A stretch of DNA of 64,000 bases. Source: Gonapodya prolifera JEL478. Lineage: Eukaryota; Monoblepharomycota; Monoblepharidomycetes; Monoblepharidales; Gonapodyaceae. Below, piece after piece: positions 12,115 to 25,975 of the stretch (its first letter is position 1; each line of letters begins with the position of its first letter). The notes beneath the pieces are model-generated. The model saw only the letters and a list, made by a program, of their open reading frames with translations. It did not search any database and was not told the DNA's origin. The stretch lies in NCBI GenBank assembly GCA_001574975.1, contig KQ965788.1:222943-286942 (forward strand), given 5' to 3'. A program made the translations under genes and the position numbers.

Positions 12115-13983
12115 TCAATAAACCCTCGACTTTAACCGCAGCTGGACCTTATTATAGGGTTTTGACGTGCCAAGCTATTTATTTGTCGGGCATATCAAAC
12201 CGTCAGCTCATGCGTCCAACATATTCGAGTGAGAGATAAGACTCACCGAAAAACGCGGCACTTGAGGCCACGTGCCTTTGACAAGTGTCAGATCGCAGCG
12301 TCGCACGATTGTACTGATAAACATCTTAATCACAGCAGTGGCAAAGCGATTGCCAACGCACTTGATCCGCGGAAGGAAACGTTCTGTCAGCTCGGCAAGA
12401 ACTTTGAATCATACCAACTCACCGGATGCTTCCCAAGCCCCCACACGGCAACGTTGTAGTTTGAATGCGGCCCACCTTGTCCCAGTTTCACCCGCATGTG
12501 CTCCTTCGCGTCCGTCTCGATTCCGCCGGCGAACTCCACTGTGCGATCAGGGTCGTACGTCCATGGGTCTGAGTGGAGTTGCTCGTTGATGTTCAAGGTG
12601 GCGTGGGGGAAGATGCAGAACGATGAGGCGGGGATGGTATATGGGCCGATGGTGACGTCTTCGAGGGAAGTGCTGGTGGTAGCAAAGAGGGGTATGGTTG
12701 CCAATGGATGACGAAATGAAATGATGGAAGTTCGCTCACCGGAAGGAAGTAAAACTCAGGCCTACAAGTCTCAAGTTCTCCGCCAGCATACGATCAATAA
12801 ATTCCATCTCGGCAAGATCGTGCATCGTAGGTGTGACCTCCGCAAGTGGGACGCCGCGTCCTCCCAAAACCCTCTCCTGCTCCGCCATCACACGAGCACA
12901 TAGATCCGGTTCGGCCGCGATACGAAGTAAAAGCCATGCCATGTTTGCCTGTGTGTTGACCTGTGCCGCCAGAATCAGACCCCAGAAGTTGGCCATGAGT
13001 TCATAGTAGTCGACCGTCCCAGTCTCGTCAGTGACTTCCTCTGCAACCCTCAGAAGCAGGTCCGCACCAGAGTTGCTCTCGGCACCAGCGGGCGTCCTTT
13101 TGTCCCCCGTAACGACTCGCTTTGCCTTGACATTTTCGACGGCGCTTTTGAACAGGTCAGCCCACTTCTGATAATTTCGCTGCGTTTCCTCCACGAGTCC
13201 CTTCTTGCTATACCACATCCGAGGGCTCTGCATAACTTGTTCGGGGTCCACGAGGTAGAACATATCCTTGAGCTTTTGCAGCTGAGGGAAACTGCTGTCG
13301 ATACCAACAAAGTGGCGGAAGCCGAGGTCAAGCATTAGGTCCCAGGTCTCGGCGAAAAGATCAGCAACGACTGAAGTTAGCGAGAAGATTCATGCAGGTA
13401 AACGATGCGGTGTCGTGAGGCCATTGAGGTTCTGAGACTCACATCCGCCAGACCAATTTGGCTTCGCCAGCATCTCCACAATAGAAGCTTCAACCTCTTT
13501 GGTAAACGTAGGCGATGCCAACGGCCTAGCCGCCGCCTCTTGTGCGAACCTCCTTCCTTCTTTCCTTCCCTCCCGATGTTCCGTGACTGCGGGGTAGAAA
13601 TTTCCCAAAAGGTAATGTGCGCCTTTCCCGAGGTCCAGGTCCTTGGACGCGAGGAAGGGTCGGCTGTTTTCGGGACCCATTATGATGTACGTCTTTCCGA
13701 AAAGGGGGACCTGGTGTTCACGTGGGCAGGTGGGAGTTCAGTTTCATTCTGTGTATGTGATTCGACGGTCGGGTTCAAGTGAGTCCGCACGTACGCTGAG
13801 CACCCCGATGCTGCCATAGGATTCATATATCTTCATCCAAATGTTTTTCGGGTCGAATGCGAGGAGAAAAAGCCAGTGCAGGAGGGAGATGCGGGGAGGG
13901 TCGGTGGGAGACGACAGTTGGCGGGCGCTGGGGAGGAGCGGGACGGCGAGAACCAGCAGCCATGCGATAATTGTGAAGACCAT
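12115..13983 (-). CDS. Cytochrome P450 monooxygenase, copy 2, apparently intact
   Basis: Haem-thiolate monooxygenase, probably anchored in the ER membrane; the substrate cannot be told from sequence. The ATG at 13983 begins a hydrophobic anchor (VFTIIAWLLVLAVPLL). IIMGPENSRPFLASKDLDLG (near 13670), FRHFVGIDSSFPQLQKL (near 13300) and the helix-I region DYYELMANFWGLILAAQVNT (near 12960) follow. The K-helix ExxR is in LAENLRL (near 12770). The haem loop WGLGKHP / CVGNRFA is split by an intron (donor at about 12423, acceptor before the Cys codon near 12371) and gives the expected FxxGxxxCxG-type site. The last exon ends KPYNKVQLRL...VY with TGA at 12115-12117. No stop or frameshift was found in the exons read. 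Family-level naming was not attempted. It is flanked by two broken copies. Confidence 0.85.
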
Positions 13984-14179: not shown

Positions 14180-15498
14180 TTAATACCCTCTCTTCTTCAA
14201 CTGGATCTGTACCTTATTGTAAGGCTTCGACGTGCCCAACTTCATCCAAGCATTCACCAAACAGCCAGTTCGCTCGTTAACTGGAGTTCAAAAGCGAATA
14301 CTCACCGAGATCCGGGGTACTTGCGGCCACGTGCCCTCGACGAGTTCAAGATCGCACTGCCGCACCACCATGCTGATAAACATCTTGATGACGGCTGTGG
14401 CGTGTTCCGACCCACTTGGTTTGTGAAAGGAGGGGTTGCGATAAGGTCAGCGATGAGACCAACAACGGCAACACTGCCACCTCGTCCACCGAGAACCGTT
14501 TTCTGCTCCACCATCACACGAGCGCACAAGTTGGGATCCGCCGCGATACGAAGAAGAAGCCACGCCATACTGGCTTGCGTGTTGACCTGTGCCGCCAGAA
14601 TCAGGCCCCCGAAGTTGGCCATGATCTCGTAGTAGTCAACTACCCCGTTCTCGTCAGTGGCGTCCTCTGCAACACTCAGGGGCAGGTCAGCTCCTGAATT
14701 GTTCTCTGCACCAGTTGGCGCTCTCCTGTCACCCGCAGTAGCTCGCTTAGCCTTCACGTCCTCCACTGCTGCTTGGAACAGATCTGCCCACATCCGATAA
14801 TTCCTCTGCGTTTCCTCCACGAGTCCCTTCTTATCATACCACATCCGCGGGCTCTTCATCACGTGCTCGGGGTCAACGAGGTAGAAGGTATCCTTGAGTT
14901 GCTGTAGTTGGGGAATGTGCTGTCGATCCCGATGAAATGGTGGAAACCGAGGTCCAATGCCATGTCCCAGGTTTCGGCGAAGAGGTCGGGCACGACTGGG
15001 GCGGGGGAGGAGCATTGGTCACCAGTAATATCAAGAATCGAAATCTACGTCGCTCCGTGGTAAGGATCCGCCTCGTCCGGCAAACAGCCTCGGTCAGCGC
15101 TTTCACGCTCATTAGGCCTTGGAGTCCTCCCCCTGTGGGGTAGAAGTCACCGAGAACAATTGCGGTGCCCTTGTTGAGGTCCATGTTCTTTGAGGCGTGG
15201 TAGGGTCTGCTGTTTTCGGGGCCCATCACGACGTCAGTCTTTCCGAGAATCGGAACCTGGAATAATTAGCGGGGTTCGATACGTGTGTATTCTCAACGCA
15301 CGTTGTCAATGGGCACACGCACCTCAGGCACACCGACGCTACCGCCGCGTTCGTACACTCTGACCCATATGTTCACGGAGTCTGTTGCGAGGAAATAGAA
15401 CTAGTAAAGGAGTGAAATGCTGGGCTGGCCGTTGGGCGGTGATTGGCGGCGGGTGCTGAGAAGAGGAGCAGAACCCATGCAATGATTGGTATGGCCAT
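14180..15498 (-). pseudogene. Cytochrome P450 pseudogene, copy 3
   Basis: Closely related to copy 2 over most of its length: LVDPEHVMKSPRMWYDKKGL, NYRMWADLFQAAVEDVKAKR and DYYEIMANFGGLILAAQVNT differ at few sites. The last exon LGTSKPYNKVQIQLKKRGY with TAA at 14180-14182 also matches. Several lesions disable it. In the N-terminal exon the frame shifts after MAIPIIAWVLLL, and an in-frame TAG (15401-15403) stands where copy 2 has Trp. After VLGGRG the exons for the K-helix ExxR and the haem-loop lead-in are missing. The sequence runs almost directly into ATAVIKMFISMVV, with the haem Cys codon replaced by TGG and a small deletion. No functional haem enzyme could be made. Confidence 0.85.
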
Positions 15499-22605: not shown

Positions 22606-23515
22606 ATGGCAACAGAATGGGAAGATGTCTTGCGCGACAAGGTGACTGCTCAATCGCCTGCGTCTCCTCCACTTCAATCGTTGAGCATCCCCTACAGGGC
22701 ATTCTCCCCGAGGTCACAGAATCGCAAATCATCGACATGATGGAAGAAACGATTGCATCTAAAACCGCAGGCAAGAGTTATGAAGATAAGACGCTGGACG
22801 AGCTCGACGACGAATTGGACGACGTTGGGGACGAGGATGAGGAACGAATTCTGCAGGTGATGAGACAGAAACGCATGGAGGAAGTACGGGCCGCCCAAGC
22901 GAAGGAGAAGTATGGAGATGTGTATCCTATTTCTAAGCCGGAGTTCGTGCGAGAGGTGACGGAAGCCAGTCAAGGTACTGTACAACTGTGGATTGGTTGG
23001 GTGCTAGGAAAATTGACCAACGAACTGCCGGGGTTTCAGAGTGTGCAGTCGTTTGCTTACTTTATAATGTGAGTCCCATTGAAGTGGTGAAAGATGCGTG
23101 CGTGCTAAATTGTTGCCTTTATAAGGACGTGGTTCCCGAATCGAAGCTAGTTTCTTCTCTTCTCGTCACCATCGCTCGGCGGTACCGGGCCGTCAAGTTT
23201 GTCAAAATTGTCGCAGCGCAGGCTGTGCCCAATTTTCCGGACCGCAATGTCCCGACGCTATTGATTTATCAGTCGGGTGATTTGCTCACGCAGCTTGTCA
23301 CACTGAGAACTCTTGGGGGGATGAGCACGTCTTCCAAGGATCTGGAGCGATACCTGGAAAAGCTTGGAATCATCAAGATTGCACCGTCGAATAGCAAGGA
23401 CACGGGGGGCGAGAGCGACGATGAGGAAAATGAACATCGCAGGCGAAAACTCCGAGTTGGATATATTGCTAGAACTGCAAATGCAGATGGCTATGACGAT
23501 GATGATATCAATTAA
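22606..23515 (+). CDS. PLP2: Phosducin-like protein of the Plp2/PDCL3 (VIAF) type
   Basis: Thioredoxin-fold co-chaperone that works with the CCT/TRiC chaperonin in folding actin, tubulin and related clients; cytosolic. Exons 22606-22641, 22698-22974, 23040-23068 and 23126-23515 keep frame and give 243 residues, normal for the family. The start MATEWEDVLRDK / GILPE is the conserved Plp2 opening, split by an intron at the usual K/G junction. An acidic helix region (LDELDDELDDVGDEDEERIL) and YGDVYPISKPEFVREVTEAS follow. The thioredoxin-like core is ECAVVCLLYN / DVVPESKLVSSLL, with FVKIVAAQAVPNFPDRNVPT and LLIYQSGDLL. It ends in an Arg/Lys stretch and an acidic tail, DDDDIN. It is transcribed away from the Hem/NCKAP1-like gene, with only about 44 bases between the start codons. 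A degenerate copy of its 3' end lies near 25900. Confidence 0.93.
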
Positions 23516-24321
23516 TTATGGTGCGAAGCTCTACTACGGTCGTTCAATGATCGAAAAAGATTGGTTTTAGAAATCCTATTATTGTAGTCCACTTTCATCT
23601 TCCATTAGTGAATGCGGGCATGCCCAATGTATGGAAGGAAAGTAAGCTGACGGATAACGAGTCGGAGAACCAAACGGTTGTGTGCTTGAAGTAGTCTCCA
23701 TTGGTCTTCTTTTCGGTGTATCCGTTTTTTAAAAGGGTGCTCTGGGACCCTTCAAACGGAGTCGTCTCGGCGCACGTCGTAAGTTTTGGCCTGATGTCAT
23801 ATCAGAGGGCTCACAACTGACTTAGTTTAATGATGCATTGGTGATCGCCCCGGTGCGCTTTCGCTTTCCCAGCACTTCGAATCGGATACTCTCCCTTACA
23901 CGATGAACTACACCCACACTGGGTACTGGTCCTTCGATGACAGCACAGGAACAAATCAACTCGATCGGTGAGTCTTCGGTGCTGTGCACTTGAATCTTGC
24001 CCTAACAACTCGCCTCTTATATCCAGACGTAAACTTCATAAATCTCGGGCTCGCTCTCAATCCCAAAACTAAGAGTACGTTGTCCGCCCTCCGTCTTGAT
24101 AAGCAACGAAACCTCCGATTGAGGTGCGTTTCGTAACCTTTACAGTCGAAATTGATGGGTGCGCACAGCTCGCATGCACCATCACAACAATGGGACTATG
24201 GCCCCAATCTGCTGCCCCGACGGGAACATGCGTGGTGAGCGGCGTCCTGTCGGTCGCTATTCTTCTGTTGTCTGTCATTTACAACATTGCGCAACGCACG
24301 TCGCACGTTCCGTTGTGCACC
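23516..24321. other. Unassigned stretch with coding-like fragments
   Basis: No gene could be assigned. On the plus strand, fragments read like exons: VYPFFKRVLWDPSNGVVSAH (near 23725-23780) followed, after a plausible GTAAGT...TTAG intron, by FNDALVIAPVRFRF (from 23826). DVNFINLGLALNPKT (near 24028) then follows a GTGAGT...CAG intron. No start, complete frame or family could be identified. It may be another decayed gene, as its neighbours to the right are. The Plp2 3' flank occupies the left end. Confidence 0.35.
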
Positions 24322-25295
24322 TCACTCCGGCACCATGGCCTTGATCTTGGCATGGCGGGCCAGAAACGCCGGAAACTCATTGTCCTTCACTTCGAACTCG
24401 CGCGTGTCACGCAAGTCCCCGCCCGTACCGCTGTTCTTGCCCTCGAGTGTGAGCACGCGGAACTATTTCCACCGCACGGGGGCGATGGCGCGGATGTGCG
24501 CCCGCATGTCTTCACGCCAGTTGAACTTGTTCACGATGGTGTTGAGCTTTATGGGCACGCGGGCCTCGCGCAGCAAGCGCACGACATTGGACACGGACTG
24601 CACGTGGTGGCCCGCCCCGCGCGCGGTTGGTGGGGTCGTCAAATGAGTCCACGGACAGCCCGAACATGCTCAGATGGTGCCCGTGCCGCGCGATCCAGTC
24701 GCGCTTTGACCAGGGAGCCGTTGGAGATGACGGTGACGATCTCGCCAAGGTACTCCGGGTGCACGAACGGCTCCCCACCGGCGTAGTTGAGTTTGCACAT
24801 CCCGGCGTCTGCGAGCATCCGCAGCGCGCGCTTGAGGTCCGCGATGGGTGTGAGGGAGCACGTTTTGGCGGTGTGGAAGCAGAATCCGAACGTGTAGTTG
24901 CGTTTTTGCGACGGAAAAATATTGACAGAAATGGATTCGCGCACGTCGCGTGTCTCGGGTGCTCAGTGGGTGGGTGGTGTTGGTTGGAAGCTAAGCAAGG
25001 TGGCCAGCCCAAGTCCGAAAGAAGCTGCGAGGAGTTCACAAGCGTTAGCCTGCCGCGTCACTGTGGCCAATACAGACGACGACACGTGGTTTGCATTGCA
25101 ATGCGACGCAGTGAGCGACAGCGGCGGAATGACGAGTGTGTCCCCGGGACGGAGCTCGGCTTTGAAGGCGCCCTCCACGGCAGCCAGAAGCGGCAACAGG
25201 TCAGCGCCAGTGAAATTCGTGTGCCAAATGCCGCTCCTCGCAGAGTGTAGGCGGCGTCCGGAGGCAGCAGCCAGAACAGGTGGACGGTCCGCCAT
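24322..25295 (-). pseudogene. Viperin-type radical SAM protein relic
   Basis: Viperin-family enzymes use a 4Fe-4S cluster and S-adenosylmethionine to make chain-terminating ddh-nucleotides and are antiviral; fungal members are known. Read on the minus strand, ISVNIFPSQKRNYTFGFCFH is followed by TAKT, LKRALRMLADAGMCKLNYAG and GEPF. Then come ISNGSLV, LSMFGLSVDSFDDPTN, VPIKLNTIVNKFNW, IRAIAPVRWK and LEGKNSG, all co-linear with viperin. It is dead. Two of the three cluster cysteines are gone (Arg at 24900-24902, Phe at 24888-24890, only the Cys at 24879-24881 remains). The frame changes near 24700 and again near 24615, an in-frame TAG sits at 24463-24465, and the reading ends at MVPE-stop before the family's last segment. 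The upstream frame to 25295 includes LLAASFGLGLATLLSF, a plausible membrane helix. The locus looks strikingly GC-rich. Confidence 0.8.
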
Positions 25296-25682
25296 GAGGA
25301 CACGGATGTCAAAGGAGTCACTGCGAGTGGACCTCCGCCGATCTCGAGCGTCGCAGATGCGCCGACGCCTAGGTCCTGTGGTGCGGGGATGACAACCACG
25401 CGCGGTGGTGGTTGCTGCAGAACTATAGATTTTTTTTGATTTCAGGGTTTCCTAGCTAGAGGCGAGTTCCGGTAAGACGCCGCGAAGAAGTGATGGAGTG
25501 CCGGGAGGGTTCTCGCCCGGTTGCAGGACGGCGGGGGCGAAACATGCGCGAGAGTCCGTAGGGGTGGGTTTGGGAAAGGAGACACCGATGCGAGCAGCGA
25601 GCGCCCAGAGTAAGCGAGACGCGGGTTCCGCGAGCGGAAAGAGAAGAAGGAGTGCGATTTATGACCAGAACACGATCATTGT

Positions 25683-25975
25683 GTGGGGGTTATGGAGATC
25701 GAGGCTGTTTTGAGGGTACCCATTCATTCTTTTTTTTTAGTGGGTCTTTGGCCCACATATTCCCAACGAGACCCCAACCAGTTTCGCAGGAGCTGCCGCG
25801 GGCTTCACTACGATGCCCTGATGCTTGTGATTGAGAAGAAAAACTCGTATTCCAGTATCAAAACAGTCCGGCTCGGACCAGACAACAGGAAAACGATCAT
25901 CGTATGTGGGTCGAAACTTCGATTCAGAGATATAACTAGAACTGCTAAAGCAGATGGCTGAAGATGATGAATAAT
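25683..25975 (+). pseudogene. Degenerate copy of the phosducin-like gene's 3' end
   Basis: The frame ending SKLRFRDITRTAKADG-stop (25683-25961) resembles the end of the phosducin-like protein, RRKLRVGYIARTANADGYDD. At DNA level, 25913-25975 and 23449-23511 share CTAGAACTGC, AAGCAGATGGCT versus AATGCAGATGGCT, and a following GATGATGA. Upstream text (25683-25880) is less clearly related. No start or thioredoxin-like core is present, so this is a relic fragment, probably of a local duplication that now brackets the viperin relic. Confidence 0.55.

What the first reader, a model, noticed from the sequence alone, without database searches (positions are those of the whole stretch)
24322..25295. 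Dead viperin-type radical SAM gene with cluster cysteines lost
The viperin order of motifs is preserved (SVN, FGFCFHTAKT, GGEPF, SNGSL, SVDSFDD, KLNTIVNKFNW, APVRWK). Two of three cluster-binding cysteines are replaced (Arg and Phe), two frame changes and a stop occur, and the C-terminus is missing. Viperins are antiviral nucleotide-analogue makers known in animals and some fungi; a clear relic in a basidiomycete suggests a recently lost antiviral enzyme. The locus looks GC-rich and the changes are not the C-to-T pattern of repeat-induced mutation (TGC to CGC is T to C).
Basis: partly seen in the sequence, partly recalled or inferred. Interest (0 to 1): 0.72.

Follow-up and report, generated by a model that had tools for sequence, protein, structure and literature searches.

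The report
Broken relic of a viperin gene
This stretch of a fungal-looking genome is the decayed remains of a single viperin gene (an antiviral enzyme that makes chain-terminating nucleotides), damaged in at least six ways and with no working copy found elsewhere in the assembly, so it is a fossil of a lost antiviral enzyme rather than a new system.

Summary
On the minus strand, 24325-24932, lies a pseudogene of eukaryotic viperin/RSAD2 (radical-SAM nucleotide dehydratase). Read through, it matches the viperin model TIGR04278 (E 6.7e-54) and solved viperins (E about 1e-50), and it groups with animal and ascomycete viperins (support 100/99), apart from bacterial ones. Cysteines 1 and 2 of CxxxCxxC are Arg and Phe; cysteine 3 remains. 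There are two frame changes, and an in-frame TAG after VRWK. I add an in-frame gap of about 12 codons before SNGSL and an explanation for the missing C-terminus: the facing plus-strand gene (paralogues on four other contigs) is also cut short, so one rearrangement between 24235 and 24324 probably removed the 3' ends of both genes. No other viperin sequence was found in the 47.6-Mb assembly. Only 65% of otherwise invariant residues are kept, against 88-92% in working viperins. Sequencing error cannot explain this. The gene is dead as an enzyme. Not supported or untested: 'recently' lost (no close relative to date it), 'basidiomycete' (host not identified), and the N-terminus to 25295. Patchy viperin loss in eukaryotes is already published, so this is a new example of a known kind. 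Interest is modest.

The parts
24705..24932 (-). Viperin relic, piece 1: ISVN...FGFCFHTAKT...GGEPF...EYLGEI | VTVISNGSLVK; Cys1 to Arg (24902-24900), Cys2 to Phe (24890-24888), Cys3 kept (24881-24879)
   Evidence: TIGR04278 E 2.5e-20; PDB 9dfn E 1.4e-19; tblastn of Trichoderma virens and mouse viperins
24737..24738 (-). Junction of an in-frame gap of about 12 codons (36 bases) relative to all viperins compared, between GEI and VTVISNGSL
   Evidence: alignments
24705..24707 (-). First frame change (one base more than the frame allows, in AAA)
   Evidence: frames; KRDW resumes at 24706; GC3 phase changes here
24626..24706 (-). Viperin relic, piece 2: KRDWIARHGHHLSMFGLSVDSFDDPTN
   Evidence: tblastn piece of T. 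virens viperin
24622..24626 (-). Second frame change, best read as a net loss of about 8 bases at the NxxIGRG loop
   Evidence: alignment A1
24325..24621 (-). Viperin relic, piece 3: RGAGHH...KLNTIVNKFNW...APVRWK*FRVLTLEGKNSG...KAMVPE, with TAG at 24465-24463
   Evidence: TIGR04278 E 7.6e-11 and 4.2e-7; tblastn
24322..24324 (-). TGA directly after MVPE; the last ~65 residues of viperin (SYLILDEYMRF...KSILDVGV...RGG.Y.W) are absent here and in the whole assembly
   Evidence: C-terminal profile search of the window; whole-genome search with TIGR04278
24235..24324 (.). Inferred rearrangement joint: the facing plus-strand gene loses its 3' exons here and viperin loses its 3' end
   Evidence: paralogue tblastn stops at 24234; 3' exons of that family not found on C58
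23885..24234 (+). 5' exons of a truncated member of a small gene family (paralogues on contigs C70, C81, C11, C94)
24963..25451 (-). Upstream open frame in phase with piece 1, ending in TGA 24965-24963; no known domain, single copy; not shown to belong to the viperin gene

Best explanation
The locus is a unitary pseudogene: the only copy of a eukaryotic viperin (RSAD2/SAND-type radical-SAM nucleotide dehydratase) in this assembly, no longer able to make an enzyme. The ancestor most likely used a [4Fe-4S] cluster held by CxxxCxxC to split SAM and convert CTP (or UTP) into the chain-terminating ddh-nucleotide, limiting RNA virus replication (inferred from the family, not tested). Lesions then accumulated: loss of two of the three cluster cysteines, an in-frame gap, two frame changes, a nonsense codon, and a rearrangement or deletion that removed the 3' end of viperin together with the 3' exons of the convergent gene. 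The order of events is unknown. As it stands no translation product could bind the cluster or form the C-terminal part.
For: Family: profiles and solved viperins; eukaryotic viperin clade 100/99, apart from 16 bacterial viperin-like proteins and 4 other radical-SAM proteins. Death: lesions; 58 of 89 otherwise invariant positions kept (65%), against 88-92% when each working viperin is left out in turn; terminal branch 0.84 against 0.02-0.34 for the other eukaryotes. Only copy; the other radical-SAM hits fetched in this genome include MoaA-like, lipoyl-synthase-like and Elp3-like proteins (identified by eye) and none was called by the viperin model. Once coding: GC3 0.84 with phase shifts at the frame changes. 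Joint.
Against: No intact orthologue from a related species was available, so which differences are decay and which are lineage divergence cannot be separated. Runs of N or withheld stretches in the assembly could hide another copy. No expression data.
Confidence: 0.85

Rival explanations
1. A working viperin gene that only looks broken because of assembly or base-calling errors.
For: The two frame changes lie in an AAA run and a CG-rich run, where indel errors are commoner.
Against: Cysteine substitutions, an in-frame gap of about 12 codons, a nonsense codon and a missing C-terminus are not indel errors; the residue changes are spread over the whole protein; the C-terminal part is absent from the whole assembly.
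Confidence: 0.03
2. A decayed extra copy (duplicate or retrocopy) rather than the species' own last viperin: an intact viperin exists in the organism but is missing or masked in this assembly.
For: The ~600-base relic shows no intron; the assembly is in 207 contigs with gaps or withheld stretches; a 46-base copy of the neighbouring phosducin-like gene's end suggests that the area has been rearranged.
Against: Profile, protein and DNA searches of 47.6 Mb found only this copy. A retrocopy would more often lose its 5' end, whereas here the 3' end is lost.
Confidence: 0.12
3. A horizontally acquired viperin fragment that was never functional in this host.
For: GC3 0.84 exceeds all 23 cytochrome P450 stretches measured in this genome (mean 0.68, sd 0.066, max 0.83); weak support places it outside animal plus ascomycete viperins (82/77).
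Against: The GC3 excess is only 2.4 sd; long branches of decayed sequences are drawn outwards; nothing else examined at the locus looks foreign.
Confidence: 0.12
4. A pseudoenzyme kept for a non-catalytic role, with the loss of cysteines tolerated and the frames joined by recoding.
For: Non-enzymatic roles of animal viperin are reported (PMC11218377, abstract); Cys1 and Cys2 are lost while other motifs persist.
Against: Two frame changes plus a stop would all have to be bypassed; the C-terminus is absent; conserved positions are lost throughout.
Confidence: 0.02

Closest known systems
Eukaryotic viperin / RSAD2 / SAND (animals; ascomycetes such as Trichoderma virens 6B4C/7N7I and Thielavia terrestris)
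   Same: Same order of motifs, 43-45% identity over the part kept, same clade at 100/99
   Different: Two of three cluster cysteines, about 12 codons, part of the IGRG loop and the C-terminal ~65 residues are lost; frame changes and a stop break it
Prokaryotic viperins (NF038283)
   Same: Same radical-SAM family; E 1e-38
   Different: Weaker match than to the eukaryotic model; falls outside the bacterial groups
MoaA / GTP 3',8-cyclase
   Same: Distant radical-SAM relative (E 2.8e-5)
   Different: Not the family: viperin scores about 160 bits higher

Membership tests
Eukaryotic viperin (RSAD2), as a gene lineage | Best profile and solved-structure matches are viperins | tested here: met
   TIGR04278 6.7e-54, PDB viperins about 1e-50
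Eukaryotic viperin (RSAD2), as a gene lineage | Groups with eukaryotic viperins in a tree | tested here: met
   100/99 support
Eukaryotic viperin (RSAD2), as a working enzyme | CxxxCxxC binding the [4Fe-4S] cluster | tested here: not met
   RxxxFxxC: Arg 24902-24900, Phe 24890-24888, Cys 24881-24879
Eukaryotic viperin (RSAD2), as a working enzyme | GGEPF, SNGSL and KLNT motifs of the radical-SAM barrel | tested here: met
   present
Eukaryotic viperin (RSAD2), as a working enzyme | Conserved C-terminal part (SYLILDEYMRF ... KSILDVGV ... W) | tested here: not met
   absent from window and assembly
Eukaryotic viperin (RSAD2), as a working enzyme | One uninterrupted open frame | tested here: not met
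   two frame changes, TAG 24465-24463
Eukaryotic viperin (RSAD2), as a working enzyme | N-terminal membrane-binding helix | tested here: inconclusive
   a hydrophobic stretch LLAASFGLGLATLLSF lies upstream in phase (about 24985-25035) beyond an in-frame TGA; no homology detected
Eukaryotic viperin (RSAD2), as a working enzyme | Converts CTP/UTP to the ddh form | not testable with these tools
   no biochemistry possible; predicted negative
Unitary pseudogene | No intact paralogue in the genome | tested here: met
   with the caveat of gaps and withheld stretches
Unitary pseudogene | Intact orthologue at the same place in a related species | not testable with these tools
   no related eukaryotic genomes are held

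The most novel reading that the evidence does not exclude
A fungal lineage outside the ascomycetes carried its own antiviral viperin until fairly lately and then lost it through a single small rearrangement plus point decay, so the patchy spread of viperin in fungi is being caught in the act of loss.
Probability: 0.45. Interest if true: 0.45.

Novelty: new member of a known kind. Interest (0 to 1): 0.33.

Why it matters
Viperin is thought to go back to the last common ancestor of eukaryotes but is absent from most species surveyed (PMC10732462). A datable relic is direct evidence that this patchiness comes at least partly from loss, not only from scattered gain, and marks a clade in which the cost or lost usefulness of the enzyme against fungal RNA viruses could be tested by comparing sister species with and without it. 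It is one example, and gene loss in this family is already accepted, so the weight is modest.

Tried and rejected
Scans of prokaryotic and viral collections with the relic itself found no relatives; with a viperin alignment they gave bacterial viperins and other radical-SAM proteins used for the tree, and one weak viral-contig match (22% identity) not pursued. A splicing explanation for the frame changes was rejected: an intron cannot supply missing codons or restore cysteines. Repeat-induced mutation was rejected. A hidden C-terminal exon was rejected. Identification of the host by 5.8S rRNA, hydrophobin, DUF6534 and KDZ transposase failed; the last three searches had no working control. The upstream frame 24966-25451 matched nothing in Pfam, and only a chance-level PDB hit. 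I did not fold any piece: single-sequence models of a decayed protein would not be interpretable. No papers on viperin in basidiomycetes were found in the library.

Full report
What was checked. The finding describes a dead viperin gene at 24322-25295. The pieces are separate open frames: 24639-24962, 24463-24669 and 24322-24462, plus a short stretch read in the third frame between the first two.

Is it viperin? Yes. Piece by piece, the NCBIfam model TIGR04278 (viperin) matches with E 2.5e-20, 7.6e-11 and 4.2e-7. Read through, with X at the breaks, the model matches with E 6.7e-54 and 183 bits, against 133 bits for the broader viperin model and 23 for MoaA. Solved viperins match at 1e-49 to 1e-50. 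A maximum-likelihood tree with 16 bacterial viperin-like proteins and 4 other radical-SAM proteins puts the relic with animal and ascomycete viperins at 100/99. Its own branch is long (0.84, against 0.02-0.34 in the other eukaryotes), and its place outside animals plus ascomycetes has weak support (82/77).

Is it dead? Yes, on several independent counts. Cysteines 1 and 2 of CxxxCxxC are Arg (24902-24900) and Phe (24890-24888); cysteine 3 (24881-24879) remains. One frame change lies in the AAA at 24707-24705. The other, at 24626-24622, is best read as a net loss of about eight bases at the conserved NxxIGRG loop. TAG follows VRWK at 24465-24463. The last ~65 residues are missing: a profile of that part found nothing in the window, and the full viperin model found only this locus in the 47.6-Mb assembly. 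The third-position GC of 0.8-0.9 changes phase at the frame breaks, which shows that one reading frame was once selected across all the pieces. Of 89 positions identical in four working viperins the relic keeps 58 (65%); each working viperin, left out in turn, keeps 88-92%. Some of that deficit may be true divergence of an unsampled lineage.

Why the C-terminus is missing. Facing the relic on the plus strand lies a fragment (23885-24234) of a small gene family with members on contigs C70, C81, C11 and C94. The paralogues on C70 and C81 continue with further exons, but here the match stops at 24234 and the 3' exons are not found on this contig. Viperin homology stops at 24325 coming from the other side. 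Two convergent genes both losing their 3' ends within about 90 bases is most simply one deletion or rearrangement. This is inference: without an intact relative the missing piece cannot be measured.

Is it the only copy? DNA, protein and profile searches of the assembly found no second viperin. Of the other radical-SAM hits, the six fetched include recognisable MoaA-like, lipoyl-synthase-like and Elp3-like proteins (identified by eye from the translations), and none was called by the viperin model. Gaps and withheld stretches leave a small doubt.

What is not supported. 'Recent' is not shown: no close relative is available for a date; the retained GC3 argues against great age, and the lost invariant positions argue against very recent death. 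'Basidiomycete' is not shown: short introns, F-box, MYND and many P450 genes fit a fungus, but marker searches were empty and without a working control. The N-terminal part up to 25295 is not shown to be viperin: the frame 24966-25451 ends in TGA, has no known domain and occurs once. It does contain a hydrophobic stretch that could be a membrane anchor.

Was it foreign? GC3 is 0.84, above 23 P450 stretches of the same genome (mean 0.68, sd 0.066, max 0.83). That is suggestive at most.

Known context. Viperin is regarded as ancestral to eukaryotes, with a sparse present-day spread (PMC10732462). Fungal enzymes of this kind have been isolated and make ddh-nucleotides (PMC9642334). The relic is therefore a new example of an accepted process; its worth lies in being a physical trace of loss with a visible breakpoint.

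Noticed in passing
window 23885-24234 (+): 5' exons of a truncated member of a small family without a Pfam match (paralogues C70:165.9-166.7 kb, C81:38.2-38.9 kb, C11, C94); its 3' exons are missing here.
   Followed up: yes
window 23447-23492 and 25914-25959: A 46-base stretch from the 3' end of the phosducin-like gene recurs at 80% identity on the other side of the viperin relic, a sign of local duplication.
   Followed up: partly
window 24966-25451 (-): Open frame in phase with viperin piece 1, with a hydrophobic stretch and no known domain; single copy in the assembly. Could be an anchor, an upstream gene or chance.
   Followed up: partly
window 24103-24783 (+): Long antisense open frame joining the truncated plus-strand gene to the antisense of the relic; probably a by-product of high GC.
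   Followed up: no
window 12739-13389 and 14305-15018 (-): Two neighbouring cytochrome P450 fragments that share a motif, probably tandem copies.
   Followed up: no
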